Source: a bacterium
Lineage (GTDB): Bacteria; Verrucomicrobiota; Verrucomicrobiae; JAJYAR01
Direction of reading: 5' to 3'
DNA: 7,089 nucleotides
NCBI GenBank assembly: GCA_021779435.1
Contig: JAJYAR010000140.1
Location: 1 to 7,089, forward strand
This document shows, in pieces, positions 1-5,864 of this stretch. Positions within the stretch are counted from its first letter, which is position 1. Every line of letters starts with the position of its first letter. The notes under the pieces are model-generated. The model worked only from the letters and a program-made list of their open reading frames with translations, had not been told where the DNA came from and did not search any database. The translations under genes and the position numbers were made by a program.

Positions 1-349
1 GCCGGTCGCTTTCCACGCGGAAGCCGGCTGCATCGCCCGGGCCTGCGCCGAGCATCTGCTGGATATGGTCACGCGCGGCGAGCACCAGCGAGATGAGCGC
101 GGGGGTGACCGCGATTCGGCCCTTTCGAAGCTCGTCGAGGGCCGATTCCACGTGGTGGGTGAAGGAAGCGACGCCGTCGAAACCGAACATCGCGCCGGAT
201 CCCTTGATCGTGTGGAAAACGCGGAACAGCCGGTTGACCGCCTCGCGGTCCTCCGGATGCTCGTTGATCTCCAGCACGATCTCCTCGAGCTGGTCGAGAA
301 GGTCCGCCGCTTCGACGAGATATGTCTGGGCCGGGTTGGGCGCTTGCAT
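1..349 (-). CDS. cheA: Chemotaxis histidine kinase CheA, N-terminal Hpt domain (partial)
   Basis: The reading frame opens with ATG at 349-347 and runs off the left edge after 116 codons. It encodes a histidine phosphotransfer domain. The helix with the phospho-accepting histidine reads RVFHTIKGSGAMFGF, with His46 in the classic H-T-[IL]-K-G-[SA] context, followed by a second helix containing FTHHVE. CheA autophosphorylates this histidine in response to receptor arrays and passes the phosphate to CheY and CheB in the cytoplasm. The dimerisation, ATPase and CheW-binding domains would lie outside the window. The start is 5 bases after the response-regulator stop, which points to the same operon. 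No clear Shine-Dalgarno sequence precedes it. A stand-alone Hpt protein cannot be fully excluded, because only the first domain is visible, but the gene order favours CheA. Confidence 0.9.
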   Translation of the reverse strand, partial: MQAPNPAQTYLVEAADLLDQLEEIVLEINEHPEDREAVNRLFRVFHTIKGSGAMFGFDGVASFTHHVESALDELRKGRIAVTPALISLVLAARDHIQQMLGAGPGDAAGFRVESDR

Positions 350-354
350 GGGCT

Positions 355-720
355 TCAGCGGAGGACCTTGCCAACGACGGACACGAGTTGGTCGGGCGTA
401 AAGGGCTTGACGATCCAGCCGGTCGCGCCCGCCGCCCGACCAGCCGCCTTCCTTTCCGGCTCGCTCTCGGTCGTGAGCATGATGATCGGCACGTATCGGT
501 AACGCGGCTCGCAGCGGAGCTGGCGGATGAGTTCGAGCCCGTCCATGTTCGGCATGTTCAGGTCCGCGATGATCATGTCCGCCGCGCCGCCGCGGAGCCT
601 GGCCAGGGCCTCGCGTCCATCGCAGGCCTCGAGCACGGAATAGCCGGCGCGCTGCAGGGTGAAACTCACCATCTGGCGGATGCTCGGCGAGTCGTCGACG
701 GACATGATCGTGCGGGTCAT
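355..720 (-). CDS. cheY: CheY-like single-domain response regulator
   Basis: This 121-residue protein is just one receiver domain, the usual CheY length. The acidic pocket is Asp9-Asp10, the phospho-acceptor is Asp53 in DLNMPNMDG, the switch Thr is Thr83 and the conserved lysine is Lys105 in VKPF, so it should be phosphorylated by CheA. The position matching E. coli CheY Tyr106 is Trp102 (GWIVKPF), an unusual switch aromatic. The ATG overlaps the stop of the STAS gene as ATGA (720-717). The bases before the start are pyrimidine-rich (CCTCCTTTCCCC) with no Shine-Dalgarno sequence, so translation is probably coupled to the upstream gene. Its output could be the flagellar switch, or modulation of the kinase as a phosphate sink; the sequence does not decide which. 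Confidence 0.94.
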   Translation of the reverse strand: MTRTIMSVDDSPSIRQMVSFTLQRAGYSVLEACDGREALARLRGGAADMIIADLNMPNMDGLELIRQLRCEPRYRYVPIIMLTTESEPERKAAGRAAGATGWIVKPFTPDQLVSVVGKVLR

Positions 721-1034
721 GGGGAAAGGAGGGTTTCACACGCAACGGCCGTGGCCGCCTGGCGCACCGCGTCGGAGGAGTTGGTGAAGCGCACGAGCTT
801 CCCGGCCTTCGCCGCGGAGTGCCGCACGGCCAGGAGAAATTGAACACCGAGGGTGTCGCAGGCGGCCACCGCTCCCAGATCGAGCGTGAGTTCCGTCGCC
901 TCGGCGAGACTCGCGCGGCACGAAGCCGCAAACGCCTCGATCGTGTGGATCGTAAGCTGTTCTCCCGCCGAGATCGGGCCCGCGCTGAGCGGAGCGGAGG
1001 CAGCGGTTTGCGATGTCTGGGACGCGTCGTTCAT
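717..1034 (-). CDS. STAS-domain protein (anti-sigma-factor-antagonist fold) of the chemotaxis operon
   Basis: This is a 105-residue protein. Residues 1-22 are a Ser/Ala/Thr-rich, probably disordered tail. The rest is one STAS domain, with a strand (LTLDLGAV, about 49-56) followed by the signature loop and helix CDTLGVQFLLA (59-69). In SpoIIAA/RsbV relatives this loop carries a phosphorylatable Ser next to the Asp. Here Thr61 follows Asp60 and the next residue is Leu62, so any regulation would use Thr61. STAS genes placed before cheY and cheA are known in several chemotaxis operons, but their exact role is poorly defined; a scaffold or partner-switch function is inference. The ATG lies 3 bases after the receptor-like gene stop, and the gene ends in a 4-base overlap with the response regulator. 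Confidence 0.85.
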   Translation of the reverse strand: MNDASQTSQTAASAPLSAGPISAGEQLTIHTIEAFAASCRASLAEATELTLDLGAVAACDTLGVQFLLAVRHSAAKAGKLVRFTNSSDAVRQAATAVACETLLSP

Positions 1035-1037
1035 CGT

Positions 1038-2987
1038 TCAGAATAGTTCCACGTTGTCGCCGAGTCCTTCGGACGCGGGCTGTCGCCCCGCCTTCGCGTC
1101 GACGGCAATCCCTGAACCCTCGCCCCGTCGCCCCAGCTCCCCTCCGCTGAGCGCGGCGGCATGCACGGCCCGCTCGGATTCCATCGTGTACCGGCTCTCC
1201 GCCCCGGCGAATTCAGCCCGCATCGCGGCGGTGTCGGCCTCGTTGCCGTGCTCCGAACACCATGTCCCAAGCGCCTCGAGTTCGCCTCCCAGCGCGTGCA
1301 GCGGCGCCCGATCGACGCCCGCCAGCTCGCAGTCCTTGAGAACGGCGGCGGCATGCTCGGAGGTCTGCCGGAGCAGCGCCGGGAACTCCTGGAGCGCGGT
1401 GACGACGAGCTCCCTCTGCTCCTTCAGTCGCGGTGCGAGGGTCAGGACTCCCGAGTCCAGCTGCCGCCGCTCCTGCTCAGAGGCCGTCGCAAACTTCGTG
1501 GCCTCCGAAACAAGCGCGTTCAATCGCGCATGGATGGCCGCCAGATCGCGGCCGAACACGTCGCCGAACACGCTCGTTTGCTCCGAGACGACATACGTGT
1601 GCCTCGCGAGCACCTCGAGTCCGTCGCAGCGGGCCACCTGGGCCGCCTGGACCTGTGCATTCAATGCAATGAGGCGGATGCCCCAGGTGAGTTCGCGAAT
1701 CGTATCGCTGAGATCCGCGGTGACGCCTCCGAAGGACCTGACCGCTTCTGCGGCCTTCCTGGCGTTTGCCTCCACGCGCCGCATCGAGCGCTGGAGATTC
1801 GCGAGCATCTCCCCGAGTGCATCCACGATGGACGCGACGTTCGAAGCCGTTACCGCGCAATCGGCTTCGCCCAGGCACTCCGATTCCACCCGGGCAAGGC
1901 GTCCGACCACCAGCCGAAGACCAGAGTCGATCGCCTCCACCGCAGAGCCGAGGTCCTGATCGATCGCCTGCAACTGGAGCAACTGCAGTCGTGACGCGTG
2001 TCCGACGTACGCGACAGCGGCGCCTTCGGCTCCGGACTCCACTCGCTGGGGCAACGCTCCCAGCGCCGACCGGACGTGCTCCAGCTTCTGCCGGGTGATA
2101 TCCTGATATTGAAGGCCCACGATGACGCCGCTGGTCTCGCGCTCGATCTGCGTCACGAGGGCGACGGACCGTCCATTTCGTTCCCGTATACCGGCGATCT
2201 CCTTCTCCAGGACAGCCAACGACCGGCGCATGGCGACGCGATCCTCGGCCGCAGCGCGGTCATCCTCGTCGCGCTGGACTTGAAGATGTTGCACAATTAC
2301 CGCGATCGTTCCGCGTGTTTCGGCAAGGGCGTCGAAATGTCGGCTGAACGCCTCCCTCACCCGGGTGTCGAGCCCACCGATTTCCTGTGTGAGCGCGCCG
2401 AACGCCGCCTGCAGTTCCGGAGGAAGGGTCGCCGCCTCGATCCGGAGCAGCGTGTGCACAATGCGCAAGGGAGAGATCGCCCGTTCGAGATGCGCGCCAT
2501 TCTGCTGCAGCCGGGCGATTTCCTCGTGCTGGGCGCACAGCGTTTCGATCAGCCGGGTACTCTCGTCGTGAAAGGCATCGAATGTGCGCAACGCCCCGTC
2601 CACCAAAGCAATCGCCGCTCTGACCGGGTTCTGCTCGTCCGACACCGCCGTGAACGAGTCGAAGTGGCGACCGTGCGCCGCCAACTGCCCCGCGAGTTCC
2701 CGCTGTCGCCCCAGGGCGGCCGCGGCCTGCAGGAACGCCCGCTCAACCGCCTCCGCGTGGGCCGCAAGCGCCGGCTCATGCGCCTGAAGCGCCGCCACAC
2801 GCGCCCTCAATCCACTCCGGGCCTCGCGTCGGATACCGGCGACGCAGCCCCGCAATGCATGAGCCACCCGCACCCCGGCGCGCCTCACGTTCTCGAATCG
2901 CGCAAACCGCGCGCCAAGCGTGGCCCGGCTGCAGGCCGTTCGGCCCGCCAAAGTGGGAAGGAGGGACTGGAGATGCAAATGCTTCAC
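1038..2987 (-). CDS. Soluble, degenerate methyl-accepting-chemotaxis-like protein with CheZ-like motif
   Basis: The GTG start at 2987 gives 649 residues beginning VKHLHLQSLLPTLAG. The protein is Ala/Glu/Arg/Gln-rich and mostly helical or coiled-coil, with no transmembrane segment or PAS/GAF sensor visible. Residues 439-471 (LIALNAQVQAAQ through YVVSEQT) follow the chemoreceptor signalling-hairpin pattern LLALNAAIEAARAGE..GFAVVA.EVR.LA, but the tip Arg and Glu residues are changed. Residues 174-225 look like a second, weaker copy (LLRIEAATL, then FGALTQEIGGLDTRV). Between them lies LQYQDITRQKLEHV (292-305), whose Asp296-x3-Gln300 resembles the catalytic D/Q helix of the CheY phosphatase CheZ. 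A low-complexity linker leads to the C-terminal NVELF. An in-frame ATG at 3188 is disfavoured because a sigma-28-like promoter and a terminator-like hairpin lie downstream of it; an in-frame GTG at 3047 is another option. Gene position says it serves the chemotaxis pathway. Whether it is a receptor, adaptor or phosphatase is open. Confidence 0.75.
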   Translation of the reverse strand: MKHLHLQSLLPTLAGRTACSRATLGARFARFENVRRAGVRVAHALRGCVAGIRREARSGLRARVAALQAHEPALAAHAEAVERAFLQAAAALGRQRELAGQLAAHGRHFDSFTAVSDEQNPVRAAIALVDGALRTFDAFHDESTRLIETLCAQHEEIARLQQNGAHLERAISPLRIVHTLLRIEAATLPPELQAAFGALTQEIGGLDTRVREAFSRHFDALAETRGTIAVIVQHLQVQRDEDDRAAAEDRVAMRRSLAVLEKEIAGIRERNGRSVALVTQIERETSGVIVGLQYQDITRQKLEHVRSALGALPQRVESGAEGAAVAYVGHASRLQLLQLQAIDQDLGSAVEAIDSGLRLVVGRLARVESECLGEADCAVTASNVASIVDALGEMLANLQRSMRRVEANARKAAEAVRSFGGVTADLSDTIRELTWGIRLIALNAQVQAAQVARCDGLEVLARHTYVVSEQTSVFGDVFGRDLAAIHARLNALVSEATKFATASEQERRQLDSGVLTLAPRLKEQRELVVTALQEFPALLRQTSEHAAAVLKDCELAGVDRAPLHALGGELEALGTWCSEHGNEADTAAMRAEFAGAESRYTMESERAVHAAALSGGELGRRGEGSGIAVDAKAGRQPASEGLGDNVELF

Positions 2988-2997
2988 CGGAACAAAC

Positions 2998-3055
2998 AAA
3001 AAAGGCACGGGGAAAGACCTTCGCTCCCATGAGCTGAGGTGTTTCACCGTGCCTT
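2998..3055 (-). terminator. 54-nt extended hairpin with T-run: terminator-like leader or attenuator
   Basis: Read on the minus strand, bases 3055-3002 fold into one continuous hairpin. It has 9 perfect pairs (AAGGCACGG with CCGTGCCTT), a T/C mismatch, 4 pairs (GAAA/TTTC), a C/C mismatch, 4 pairs (ACCT/AGGT), a 2x2 internal loop (CA/GA), 4 pairs (GCTC/GAGC) and the tetraloop ATGG. That makes 21 of 25 positions paired in perfect register. Six T residues (3003-2998) follow, then GTTTG. This is the form of a rho-independent terminator acting leftwards; the other strand has no T-run. It sits between the sigma-28-like promoter and the GTG start of the chemotaxis operon, so it could attenuate the operon or end a short RNA of about 120 nt. 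Confidence 0.7.
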
Positions 3056-3124
3056 CTCGGGTGCAGGCCTGGATATCCTGCCCTGAAATGCTATCGCACC
3101 ACCGTGTGGCGCGACCTGCGGCTT

Positions 3125-3151
3125 GTATCGGCGCTCTCCGCACGGGCTTGA
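3125..3151 (-). promoter_or_regulatory. Sigma-28 (FliA)-type promoter for the chemotaxis operon
   Basis: On the minus strand the -35 region is TCAAGCCC (3151-3144) and the -10 region is GCCGATAC (3132-3125). The enterobacterial FliA consensus is TAAA, 15 bases, GCCGATAA. Here TCAA and GCCGATAC are separated by exactly 15 bases, giving 3/4 and 7/8 matches. Transcription would start near 3118, leaving a leader of about 130 nt before the GTG at 2987. A flagellar-class promoter is what would be expected ahead of chemotaxis genes. It also places the ATG at 3188 upstream of transcription, which supports the shorter protein. Confidence 0.65.
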
Positions 3152-3289: not shown

Positions 3290-3441
3290 TTGCGGCGGGC
3301 ATGGGGTGCAGACGCCGCGGCTGCGGTCGGGCCACCGGCAGGAAGGCCCTCTCCGGTCCGGCACTTTTCCCGATACCACGGGCCGTGCGCCATCGGGCAT
3401 AATCGTTGTCACCGCCAGAAACGAGCGGCGTCACACTTTTC

Positions 3442-4230
3442 ATGACCTTCTCCGCCCATCGTGCAACCGGCCTGCAACTGCCGAACAGCAAATGGTGGCA
3501 GTGCCTGTTTTCGGATCCTGACGCATGCATCCGCCTGTGGGGTTTTCCGTGCATAGGCGCCGGCGCGGCGATCTGGCGCCCCTGGGCTGGACCTCTTGCC
3601 GGGGCCGCCGAGCTTCTCGCCGTTTGCCTGCCCGGGCGGGACGCGCGTCTATGCGAAGCCCCGGTGACGCGTATTGATGTGTTGGCGACGGCGATGGCGG
3701 CCGAATTCGAGCTGCACTCCGATGAGCGCGACGTGTTTCTCGGCCACGGCCTGGGCGCCCTGCTGGCGTATGAGGTCGCCCGCCGACTGAGACGGGATGG
3801 CGCGCCCGGCCCCCGCGCGCTGATCGTCTGCGGCGAGAGACCGCCCGACACCCCGCGTCGCCCGGCCCCGTTCCTGCACACGCTCTCCCCGCGCGAGTTC
3901 AAGGCGGGAGTCGAGCGCACCTACGGCGACATCCCGGCCGAATTTGCACAGTGCCCCGAGGCGCTGGAGTTCCTTCTCCCCATGCTTCGCGCGGACGTCG
4001 AGGCGCTCGAGACCTACGTCTTTGACCGTCGCTTCGAACGCCTCGATATTCCGATCCTCGCAATGGCCGGAACGTCCGACGCCCTTGTCTCCGCGGATGA
4101 CCTCCGAGCCTGGTGCAGGCACACGACGAGTTGGTTTCAATCCGTCCAGGTTGCCGGCTCGCATTTCATCGTTACCGACAACGTATTCGAGACGGCGGAT
4201 CGGGCGCGGACCTTCCTGGCCTCGCTCTAG
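3442..4230 (+). CDS. Type II thioesterase-like alpha/beta hydrolase lacking the nucleophile Ser
   Basis: This protein has 262 residues from ATG 3442; a TTG at 3406 would add 12. Its layout is that of the type II thioesterases that clean carrier proteins of NRPS/PKS systems. The opening strand has RLWGFPCIGAGAAIWRPW (about 31-48), then CLPGRDARLCEAP, the nucleophile elbow at 101-105, a lid region and a C-terminal catalytic half. The acid is Asp213 (AGTSDALV) and the base is His241 (GSHFIV). The elbow, normally G-H-S-x-G, reads GHGLGALLAYEV: the nucleophile position is Gly103 (codon GGC, 3748-3750), one base from the AGC serine codon. As written, it should not be an ordinary serine thioesterase. 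It could be a binding protein, a decaying gene or a read error. No NRPS or PKS gene is in the window. The nucleotidyltransferase gene follows 65 bases downstream. Confidence 0.82.
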   Translation: MTFSAHRATGLQLPNSKWWQCLFSDPDACIRLWGFPCIGAGAAIWRPWAGPLAGAAELLAVCLPGRDARLCEAPVTRIDVLATAMAAEFELHSDERDVFLGHGLGALLAYEVARRLRRDGAPGPRALIVCGERPPDTPRRPAPFLHTLSPREFKAGVERTYGDIPAEFAQCPEALEFLLPMLRADVEALETYVFDRRFERLDIPILAMAGTSDALVSADDLRAWCRHTTSWFQSVQVAGSHFIVTDNVFETADRARTFLASL

Positions 4231-4295: not shown

Positions 4296-5075
4296 ATGCA
4301 GAGCCTTCCGGAATCCACCTTAAAAAATGCTCCGATCCCGGCGCCTTGGGCAGCGCTGATTCCCGATGATCAGTGGGTAGTCTTCACCAGCGGAACCCGG
4401 GCCATCAGGGAGGCCGGCGTCGCCGCGATGCTCGGAGGCGCCGTCGGGCTCGCCACGTACACCCGGCACTGGCGCAACACCAAGGACGTCGACGTGTTCG
4501 TGAGGGACAGCGAACATGAGAAGGCCGTCGCCGCGGTGCTGGCGCTCGGTTTCGAGGACTACCACGGCAGGCTTTCCTACGACCGAAGCTGGATCTTCCG
4601 CGCCTATAGCAACGGCGTCCTATTTGACATCATCTGGGCCCTGCCGAACCACCGCGTGCCGATCGACGACGCATGGTTCGAGCGCGCTCGGGCCGTGTGC
4701 CTGCGCGGCGATGTCCATGACGCCGTTCCGATCGAGGAACTCGTGCGCGTGAAGCTCTACGTCATGCAGCGCGAACGCTGCGACTGGGTGGACGTGTTCA
4801 ATGTCCTCGCGGGCGCGTGTGAGCTGATCGACTGGCCATGGCTCGTGAAAAGGATGGGACGCGATCTGCCGCTCCTGCAGGCGGCGCTATCCGTGTTCGC
4901 CTGGCTGTCACCGGGGCGCGCGGCCGCGATTCCGGTGTGGCTTCGGGAACAGTTGGCGCTGCCAAGCGTCGAGGTGGACGACCCCGCCGCCACTGAACTG
5001 AGGCGCGTCCGGCTGTTCGACAGCCGCCCCTGGTTCGCCAGCCACCAGCCAACCGACAGGCCGCTTGATCGCTAA
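4296..5075 (+). CDS. Stand-alone nucleotidyltransferase-fold protein (Pol-beta superfamily, AbiEii/MNT-like)
   Basis: This is a 259-residue protein. The superfamily signature is present: a Gly-Gly turn in MLGGAVGLATYTRHW (Gly47-Gly48), then NTKDVDVFV with metal-binding Asp64 and Asp66, and a probable third acidic residue Asp111 in LFDIIW. Further on, RVKLYVMQRERCDWVDVFN (151-169) matches the Lys and R-x-x-D pattern common after the catalytic domain in AbiEii-type and aminoglycoside-nucleotidyltransferase-like proteins. The enzyme should transfer a nucleotide from an NTP to an unknown acceptor. Residues 170-259 have no recognised domain. No AbiEi-type antitoxin or HEPN partner gene adjoins it, so a toxin-antitoxin role is not supported. 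The stop is 12 bases before the TIM-barrel gene, which has its own Shine-Dalgarno sequence, so the two probably form an operon. The start lacks a clear ribosome binding site. Confidence 0.8.
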   Translation: MQSLPESTLKNAPIPAPWAALIPDDQWVVFTSGTRAIREAGVAAMLGGAVGLATYTRHWRNTKDVDVFVRDSEHEKAVAAVLALGFEDYHGRLSYDRSWIFRAYSNGVLFDIIWALPNHRVPIDDAWFERARAVCLRGDVHDAVPIEELVRVKLYVMQRERCDWVDVFNVLAGACELIDWPWLVKRMGRDLPLLQAALSVFAWLSPGRAAAIPVWLREQLALPSVEVDDPAATELRRVRLFDSRPWFASHQPTDRPLDR

Positions 5076-5077
5076 CG

Positions 5078-5082
5078 AAGGA
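5078..5082 (+). promoter_or_regulatory. Shine-Dalgarno site of the TIM-barrel gene
   Basis: AAGGA lies 5 bases before the ATG at 5088. It is the clearest ribosome binding site in the window. It supports this start over the out-of-frame ATG at 5084. Confidence 0.7.
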
Positions 5083-5087
5083 AATGC

Positions 5088-5864
5088 ATGCAAATCGGCG
5101 CGATGAACAACCCCGCGGAGCCACTGGCCCGCGAAGTCGAATGGATGGCCGAACTCGAGCTCGACTTCATCGATCTCACCCTGGAACCCCCGGCCGCCGC
5201 CTCCTGGAAACTCAGTGCCGCCGAGGTGGCGGCCATGCTGCGGGACGCCGATCTCGGAGTGATCGGCCACACCGCCTTCTACCTGCCGATTGCCTCGAAT
5301 TTTCCGAGCCTCAGGCGGACCGCGATCGACGAGATCAAGCGCGACATCGAATTCTTCAAGGAAGTCGATGCGCGCTGGATCAACGTGCATCCGGACGGAT
5401 ACGCGCCGTTCATCGACGAACCCACGGTCGTCAGGCGGAACATCGAGGCGCTGCTCGAGCTGACCGAGTTTGCCGACTCGCTCGGCGTGGGCGTCATGCT
5501 GGAGAACGTCCCCGGACGCTTCAACTCGGTCACCCAGCTCGCGCCCATCTTCGCGTCAGTTCCCAAGCTCGCGCTGCATCTCGATCTTGGGCACTGCAAC
5601 CTTTCAGTCCCGCGCAACACCGCCCCCGAGCTGATCTCGTACTTCGGCACGCGCCTCGCGCACGTCCATGTGCATGACAACCGCGGCGGCAGCGCCGACC
5701 TGCACCTCGCCCTTGGTATGGGCGATCTGGATGTCGCGCCTCTCGTGCGCAATCTCCGCGCAAACGGGTACGACGGGACGATCACCCTCGAGGTGTTCTC
5801 ACGGGACCGGCATTTCGTCGCCTACAGCCGCGACCGTCTCCTCGAGATATGGGCCGCCGCCTGA
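5088..5864 (+). CDS. Sugar phosphate isomerase/epimerase-type TIM barrel (endonuclease IV superfamily)
   Basis: This protein has 258 residues and a full-length beta/alpha barrel of the xylose-isomerase-like/AP-endonuclease-2 family. The metal ligands known from E. coli endonuclease IV all have counterparts: His61 (GHTAFY), His101 (NVHPDG), Glu139 (MLENVPG), Asp166 and His169 (HLDLGHCN), His194 (HVHVHDN), Asp204 and His206 (ADLHLALGMGDLD) and Glu235 (TLEVFS). A three-metal site is therefore likely. The family holds both AP endonucleases and sugar isomerases/epimerases, and sequence alone does not separate them here. It is somewhat shorter than endonuclease IV (285 residues), which slightly favours the isomerase-like branch. 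The 12-base spacing to the nucleotidyltransferase gene and the good ribosome binding site suggest co-expression. Their shared substrate, if any, is unknown. Confidence 0.88.
   Translation: MQIGAMNNPAEPLAREVEWMAELELDFIDLTLEPPAAASWKLSAAEVAAMLRDADLGVIGHTAFYLPIASNFPSLRRTAIDEIKRDIEFFKEVDARWINVHPDGYAPFIDEPTVVRRNIEALLELTEFADSLGVGVMLENVPGRFNSVTQLAPIFASVPKLALHLDLGHCNLSVPRNTAPELISYFGTRLAHVHVHDNRGGSADLHLALGMGDLDVAPLVRNLRANGYDGTITLEVFSRDRHFVAYSRDRLLEIWAAA

What the first reader, a model, noticed from the sequence alone, without database searches (positions are those of the whole stretch)
2998..3055. Near-perfect 54-nt hairpin plus T-run placed between promoter and chemotaxis operon
The minus strand forms a symmetric hairpin with 21 of 25 paired positions, an ATGG tetraloop and six T residues after the stem. 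That is a textbook intrinsic terminator, yet it lies inside the leader of the operon it precedes. Options are conditional attenuation, a new cis-regulatory RNA, or a free-standing sigma-28-driven small RNA of about 120 nt. The pairing and T-run are seen directly; the regulatory role is inference. I could not match it to a riboswitch class I know.
Basis: partly seen in the sequence, partly recalled or inferred. Interest (0 to 1): 0.72.

Follow-up and report, generated by a model that had tools for sequence, protein, structure and literature searches.

The report
New riboswitch-like leader of chemotaxis genes
The hairpin is the last of three in a conserved RNA leader that follows motility-type promoters in Verrucomicrobia and probably decides whether chemotaxis-receptor and outer-membrane-channel genes are transcribed.

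Summary
The hairpin is real (-35.4 kcal/mol, z -5.7) but is the last third of a larger element. Window 3117-2996 (minus) holds hairpin A, a GCWUUY linker, hairpin B and the reported terminator hairpin C, just after a sigma-28-like promoter. Covariance models from four, then eleven copies find it in 33 of 252 genomes of the family of Opitutaceae bacterium EW11 (26 at E<=2.5e-6), up to six matches per genome. On 46 copies the helices covary (94.4% of cells paired; 180 double-change cells, 45 in shuffles). No Rfam family reaches its threshold; sub-threshold matches are long-hairpin families. A sigma-28-like site precedes 36 of 46 copies (4% of shuffles). 28 of 46 copies precede chemotaxis/signalling genes, 9 precede outer-membrane proteins. 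The linker can pair with the terminator's 5' arm: predicted in 41 of 46 nascent RNAs, whereas 44 of 46 full RNAs form the terminator. Best reading: a conditional transcription attenuator, possibly a new riboswitch class. Termination, read-through and effector are untested; the antiterminator lacks covariation support.

The parts
3125..3151 (-). sigma-28-like promoter TCAA-N15-GCCGATAC; its last base lies 7 nt before the element
   Evidence: 10 of 12 matches to TAAA/GCCGATAA (consensus recalled); 36 of 46 copies have such a site at 9 of 12 or better, shuffles 4.0%
2996..3117 (-). whole conserved leader element (three hairpins plus T-run)
   Evidence: model R3, 68.6 bits, E 1.8e-17 (the window is one of the 46 sequences behind R3); non-seed copies score 45-66 bits with R1, built from four copies
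3093..3115 (-). hairpin A
   Evidence: fold; all 9 pairs have changes on both sides
3085..3091 (-). conserved linker GCAUUUC; proposed antiterminator strand
   Evidence: complementary to the terminator 5' arm in most copies; in the window 5 of 6 positions pair, with one A-G mismatch
3060..3083 (-). hairpin B with conserved loop GGAU....GGCC
   Evidence: 5 of 6 pairs have changes on both sides
2999..3058 (-). hairpin C, the reported terminator hairpin (core 3002-3055)
   Evidence: distal pairs outside the model also covary
3051..3058 (-). 5' foot of hairpin C (GAGAAGGC), shared by terminator and proposed antiterminator
2998..3003 (-). run of six T after the stem
   Evidence: 45 of 46 copies have at least 5 T in 10 bases there
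1038..2987 (-). first gene behind the element: 649-aa chemoreceptor-like protein from a GTG start chosen by me (true start uncertain)
   Evidence: no Pfam match itself; some distant relatives carry the MCP signalling domain
717..1034 (-). STAS-domain protein
355..720 (-). CheY-like response regulator
2..349 (-). Hpt-domain protein, cut by the window end; start chosen by eye

Best explanation
It is the expression platform of a conserved cis-regulatory leader RNA. A sigma-28 promoter starts an RNA that begins almost at hairpin A. RNA polymerase makes hairpin A, the linker and hairpin B, then the 5' arm of the terminator. At that point the linker (GCUUUC in most copies) can pair with the 5' arm (GAAGGC), enclosing hairpin B: an antiterminator. 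If nothing holds it, the longer hairpin C displaces it and transcription stops at the T-run; if an effector stabilises the hairpin-B domain, transcription reads through into the chemoreceptor or porin gene. Shown by computation: the conserved three-hairpin RNA, promoter-like sites, gene context, competing folds in prediction. Inferred: termination, switching, the direction (effector gives ON), the effector. I think a small molecule somewhat likelier than an RNA-binding protein.
For: Three helices covary in 46 copies, in the 11-copy MAFFT alignment and in an unsupervised column scan. Promoter-like sites end 6-17 nt before the element in 36 of 46. Rule-chosen gene starts lie close behind the T-run, 7-13 nt in four of the five genes of the window's family and 8 nt for the window's GTG, which leaves hardly any room for another promoter; only 4 of 46 copies show a sigma-28-like site in the 70 nt after it. 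Linker and terminator foot are complementary in 90.9% of cells, slid controls 35-64%. Nascent RNA is predicted to form that helix in 41 of 46 (largest pair probability over 0.5; at least 5 of 6 pairs in 33), full RNA the terminator in 44 of 46.
Against: The antiterminator pairing is hardly better than shuffles (cells paired 14/500, double-change cells 26/500, score 86/500), since both strands barely vary. Shuffled linkers still pair 4 or more bases with the arm in 60% of cases (43 of 46 observed). In 5 of 46 copies, and poorly in the window (2 of 6 model pairs), it is not well predicted. Two copies have no close gene behind them. Other promoter types after the T-run were not scanned. No transcript data, no effector.
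Confidence: 0.62

Rival explanations
1. A free-standing sigma-28-driven small RNA of about 125 nt, ended by hairpin C, acting in trans; the neighbouring genes have promoters of their own.
For: Promoter, compact structured RNA and terminator form a complete small-RNA gene; 2 of 46 copies, L122 and L126, have no same-strand gene close behind; the linker is conserved and partly single-stranded when C is formed.
Against: The other copies stand before a limited set of gene types, with up to six matches per genome; little room for a second promoter in the window's gene family; few sigma-28-like sites after the T-run (4 of 46).
Confidence: 0.15
2. A fixed, non-sensing attenuator or 5' stabilising structure that only lowers or protects the message, spread with its promoter as a module.
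For: Promoter-like site plus element recur before unrelated genes; 27 of 31 loci with homologues of the window's first gene show no match to it, so the module does not follow the gene.
Against: A plain terminator needs neither a conserved 5' arm nor two covarying hairpins and a conserved linker before it.
Confidence: 0.12
3. The leader acts after transcription (translation or decay), and hairpin C is not an efficient terminator in vivo.
For: No termination data exist; efficiency in these bacteria is unknown.
Against: Long GC-rich stem with at least 5 T in 10 bases in 45 of 46 copies; the element often ends tens of bases before the start codon.
Confidence: 0.08

Closest known systems
c-di-GMP-I (GEMM, RF01051) and cGAMP riboswitches
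   Same: Leader RNAs tied to environment, membrane and motility genes, with terminator platforms (abstract and outline of PMC9262584 seen; other papers seen only as listing)
   Different: Not listed among Rfam matches to this element at E<=10 or E<=1; simpler layout; RF01051 matched 0 of 25 element-bearing genomes, but the tool's control genomes were silent too, so that absence is not shown
sigma-28-dependent small RNAs of enterobacteria such as MotR, FliX, FlgO, UhpU (recalled)
   Same: RNAs of the sigma-28 regulon linked to motility
   Different: Here the RNA lies at the 5' end of the gene it precedes, with a terminator between promoter and gene; other phylum; no sequence relation tested
Protein-controlled antiterminators overlapping a terminator, such as BglG/LicT or ANTAR targets (recalled)
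   Same: A hairpin domain shares bases with the 5' arm of a terminator
   Different: Layout recalled as different (hexaloops or RAT sequence); no binding-protein gene was sought

Membership tests
Any Rfam 15 family | Score over the curated gathering threshold | tested here: not met
   Window at gathering: 0 matches. At looser E-values only sub-threshold matches to the element, the best mir-9456, 26 bits against 80, E 0.0028, on hairpin C alone; mir-4788 20.5 against 91; the only match over threshold among ten loci was a neighbouring tRNA
Riboswitch (transcription-terminating) | Conserved covarying aptamer-like structure in 5' leaders | tested here: met
Riboswitch (transcription-terminating) | Antiterminator and terminator that exclude each other | tested here: inconclusive
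   Predicted folds support it; covariation does not; shuffled-linker control is weak
Riboswitch (transcription-terminating) | Selective binding of a small molecule | not testable with these tools
   needs in-line probing or similar
sigma-28 (FliA) regulon | sigma-28-type promoter | tested here: met
   36 of 46 at 9 of 12 or better, shuffles 4.0%, upstream control 1 of 45
sigma-28 (FliA) regulon | FliA gene present in element-bearing genomes | tested here: inconclusive
   Over cut-off in 21 of 26 element-bearing and 14 of 26 element-free genomes (my count of its rows); completeness is not told
c-di-GMP-I riboswitch | Match to RF01051 | tested here: not met
   No match to the element at E<=10
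Intrinsic terminator | GC-rich stem followed by a T-run | tested here: met
   termination itself not tested

The most novel reading that the evidence does not exclude
A new riboswitch class, found so far in the family of Opitutaceae bacterium EW11 and a few other genomes of its class, that senses one unknown small molecule and switches a taxis-and-uptake module by transcription attenuation: chemoreceptors of several sensor types, CheW, STAS and response-regulator genes and outer-membrane porins, mostly behind sigma-28-type promoters. The cell would thereby couple what it can swim towards to what it can take up.
Probability: 0.4. Interest if true: 0.9.

Novelty: new variant of a known kind. Interest (0 to 1): 0.77.

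Why it matters
It is a well-supported structured RNA family for which Rfam 15 has no match over threshold and for which my paper searches showed no description. It joins a sigma-28-type promoter to a conditional-looking terminator before chemoreceptor and porin genes, so two layers of control would act at one place. The gene set poses a concrete, testable question: what signal tells these bacteria to make receptors and channels together?

Tried and rejected
Intergenic repeat: the flank has no other repeat. A loose AAGGCAC...GTGCCTTTT pattern found 11 matches in 4 of 5 genomes, six of them being three palindromic sites seen on both strands; some in G062 are of another sequence type and look like ordinary terminators.

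Terminator of an upstream gene: rejected, as the upstream window gene is divergent.

Known riboswitch, tRNA or other Rfam RNA: nothing over threshold on the element.

Leader peptide: no conserved start codon seen by eye in the alignment.

CsrA-type GGA site: the loop's GG is base paired and changes with its partner in a few copies (columns 62-75 and 63-74); GGA is not kept in L138 or L145.

Strict sequence pattern: 5 of 252 genomes; G001 and G062 real, the single hits in G013, G076 and G195 lie in what look like coding frames and I saw no terminator in the 200 nt printed.

Kissing contact between loops A and B: looked at by eye only, not convincing.

Left out of the counts: of the 53 rows, three antisense matches (L120 minus, L115 plus, L124 plus) and four weak or partial ones (L151, L152, L156, L157); the weak G010 match L078; weak matches listed without a fetched copy. 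The neighbour chooser picked wrong strands in places and was replaced. Alignment A3 was made but not used for a model.

Viral contigs: no relative of the protein.

Full report
WHAT IS THERE. The reported hairpin is exact: two 25-nt arms, 84% complementary, 4-nt loop, -35.4 kcal/mol, z -5.74, 0 of 200 shuffles as good, followed by six T. It lies on the minus strand between a divergent thioesterase-domain gene (plus strand, 3406-4230) and an operon that reads: a 649-aa protein without Pfam match, some of whose distant relatives carry the chemoreceptor signalling domain, a STAS protein, a CheY-like response regulator and an Hpt protein.

CONSERVATION. The window has no whole genome on hand. Relatives of the 649-aa protein came from a protein search (47 proteins among the 7995 candidates scored), genome contigs (19 loci) and whole genomes. 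The only named carrier is Opitutaceae bacterium EW11 (L001, genome G001). Its leader, that of a second copy in the same genome (L024) and that of a closer homologue (49% identity, genome G062, L026) carry the same hairpin at the same place and two more hairpins above it. These four gave model R1. R1 found seven further copies in six other genomes at 45-66 bits (a 23.9-bit match in G010 and antisense matches in G001 and G062 were set aside). Eleven copies gave model R2.

DISTRIBUTION. R2 matched 33 of 252 genomes of the family of G001 at E<=0.01, 26 of them at E<=2.5e-6, with up to six matches in one genome (G067). In a sample of 384 genomes of the class 18 matched at E<=0.01; among handles not in the family list three scored 57-64 bits (G740, G831, G825), one 40 bits (G717), the others 31 bits or less. 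R3, from 46 copies, matched 7 of 377 genomes of the phylum at E<=0.001, each a genome already matched. So the family is patchy: 219 of 252 family genomes gave no match. The tool uses stricter filters for such large sets and may lose weak matches.

STRUCTURE. On 46 copies (29 genomes plus the window) 94.4% of cells are paired against 78.9% in shuffles, and 180 cells carry changes on both sides against 45.3; 0 of 500 shuffles reach either, or the covariation score; 1 of 500 reaches the count of pairs with double changes; sliding the partners drops pairing to 37-55%. That alignment is fitted to the model, which leans towards it. The 11-copy MAFFT alignment shows the same (94.5%, 14 of 25 pairs with double changes), though its structure was chosen by me from those sequences. 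RNAalifold on the 46 predicts 21 pairs, 16 with double changes. A scan of all column pairs recovers the helices and also distal terminator pairs that were in no model. Consensus (lower case less conserved): aggnncgcnnnnnggnngcggncaGCuUUcncgggcaGGacunngGgcCugunagncgaAGGCaCa...uGuGCCUUUUunnu.

PROMOTER. Within 70 nt upstream, 36 of 46 copies have a site matching TAAA-N14-17-GCCGATAA (consensus recalled) at 9 of 12 or better; 4.0% of shuffled sequences do, and 1 of 45 regions 300-370 nt upstream. The -10 part ends 6-17 nt before the element, so the RNA would begin almost at hairpin A. In the 70 nt after the element, 4 of 46 have such a site. FliA is over its cut-off in 21 of 26 element-bearing and 14 of 26 element-free family genomes (my count), a weak contrast.

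GENES BEHIND IT. Of 46 copies, by Pfam or similarity to those proteins: 16 MCP chemoreceptors with several sensor types (dCache, 4HB, CZB; L121 by similarity only); 5 members of the window's chemoreceptor-like family; 2 CheW; 1 STAS; 4 response regulators (28 in all). 3 OprB, 2 Porin_O_P, 1 Alginate_exp, 2 Phenol_MetA_deg, 1 outer-membrane efflux protein (9; that Phenol_MetA_deg and Alginate_exp are outer-membrane proteins is recalled). 3 of one secreted-looking family without Pfam match (L123, L139, L150). 1 carbonic anhydrase. 2 without a close same-strand protein gene (L122, L126). 3 unassigned (L155; L147 at 4005; L148, cut by its contig). Start codons were chosen by rule, some corrected by eye. 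The element does not follow one gene: of 31 loci with homologues of the window's first gene, 4 show it and 27 do not; at least two of the 27 (L027, L038) begin so near a contig end that the leader may be missing.

MECHANISM. The linker between A and B is GCUUUC in most copies and complementary to GAAGGC, the foot of the terminator's 5' arm. The six positions pair in 90.9% of cells, against 35-64% when slid, but shuffles give 89.8% because both strands hardly vary; covariation is not above shuffles (score 86/500, double-change cells 26/500). Four copies change C-G to U-A (L120, L124, L127, L140), and L153 has variant letters on linker, 5' arm and 3' arm with five of six positions still pairing. 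Folded up to the 5' arm, 41 of 46 RNAs have a pair of this helix at probability over 0.5, and 33 of them at least five of six; folded whole, 44 of 46 form the terminator (L140 and one copy of L147 do not). In the window the helix is imperfect (one A-G mismatch, shifted register). A control tempers all this: shuffled linkers pair four or more bases with the arm in 60% of cases, against 43 of 46. I hold a switching attenuator likely (0.62), not shown.

WHAT IS KNOWN. No Rfam family reaches threshold on the element; the best sub-threshold match, a microRNA family on hairpin C alone, has 26 bits where 80 are asked. Paper searches gave no description of such an RNA in the rows listed: 5 of 5 shown; none found; 20 of 61; 20 of 60; 10 of 63; 12 of 40; 1 of 1. 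In three ncRNA-discovery papers a passage search for chemotaxis, Verrucomicrobi, Opitut and porin found none in the main text (PMC11109978, PMC8632094, PMC2864571; I read no more of them, and no supplements). Subscription papers and preprints are not held, so an earlier description cannot be excluded. Cyclic-dinucleotide riboswitches are nearest in logic (PMC9262584, abstract and outline seen); RF01051 gave 0 of 25 in element-bearing genomes, but the control genomes were silent too, so that says little.

VERDICT. A real, conserved and, as far as I could search, undescribed leader RNA family. It looks as if it works like a terminator-based riboswitch or attenuator; membership among riboswitches cannot be claimed before a ligand is shown.

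Noticed in passing
L133:4045-4160 and 4789-4897 (minus): Two copies of the element in one stretch of genome G158, one before a CheW gene and the next before a carbonic anhydrase gene.
   Followed up: partly
L122:4046-4156 (minus), same copy as L072: A copy with no close protein gene: a tRNA lies about 340 nt behind it and then a 319-aa frame without Pfam match. With L126 it is a candidate free-standing form or a remnant.
   Followed up: partly
L147:4005-4113 (minus): Behind this copy the frames show pieces resembling a phosphate-type porin and an MCP tail, as if the gene were broken or misassembled.
   Followed up: no
alignment A7, columns 54-84 and 55-71: High mutual-information scores outside the known helices, between the linker and bases around hairpin B; possible tertiary contacts or mere relatedness.
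   Followed up: no
   Followed up: no
window 4296-5864 (plus): A frame with a weak NTP_transf_5 match (below cut-off) followed by an AP_endonuc_2 TIM-barrel protein; a TIM-barrel protein also lies near the element in G062 (L070).
   Followed up: no
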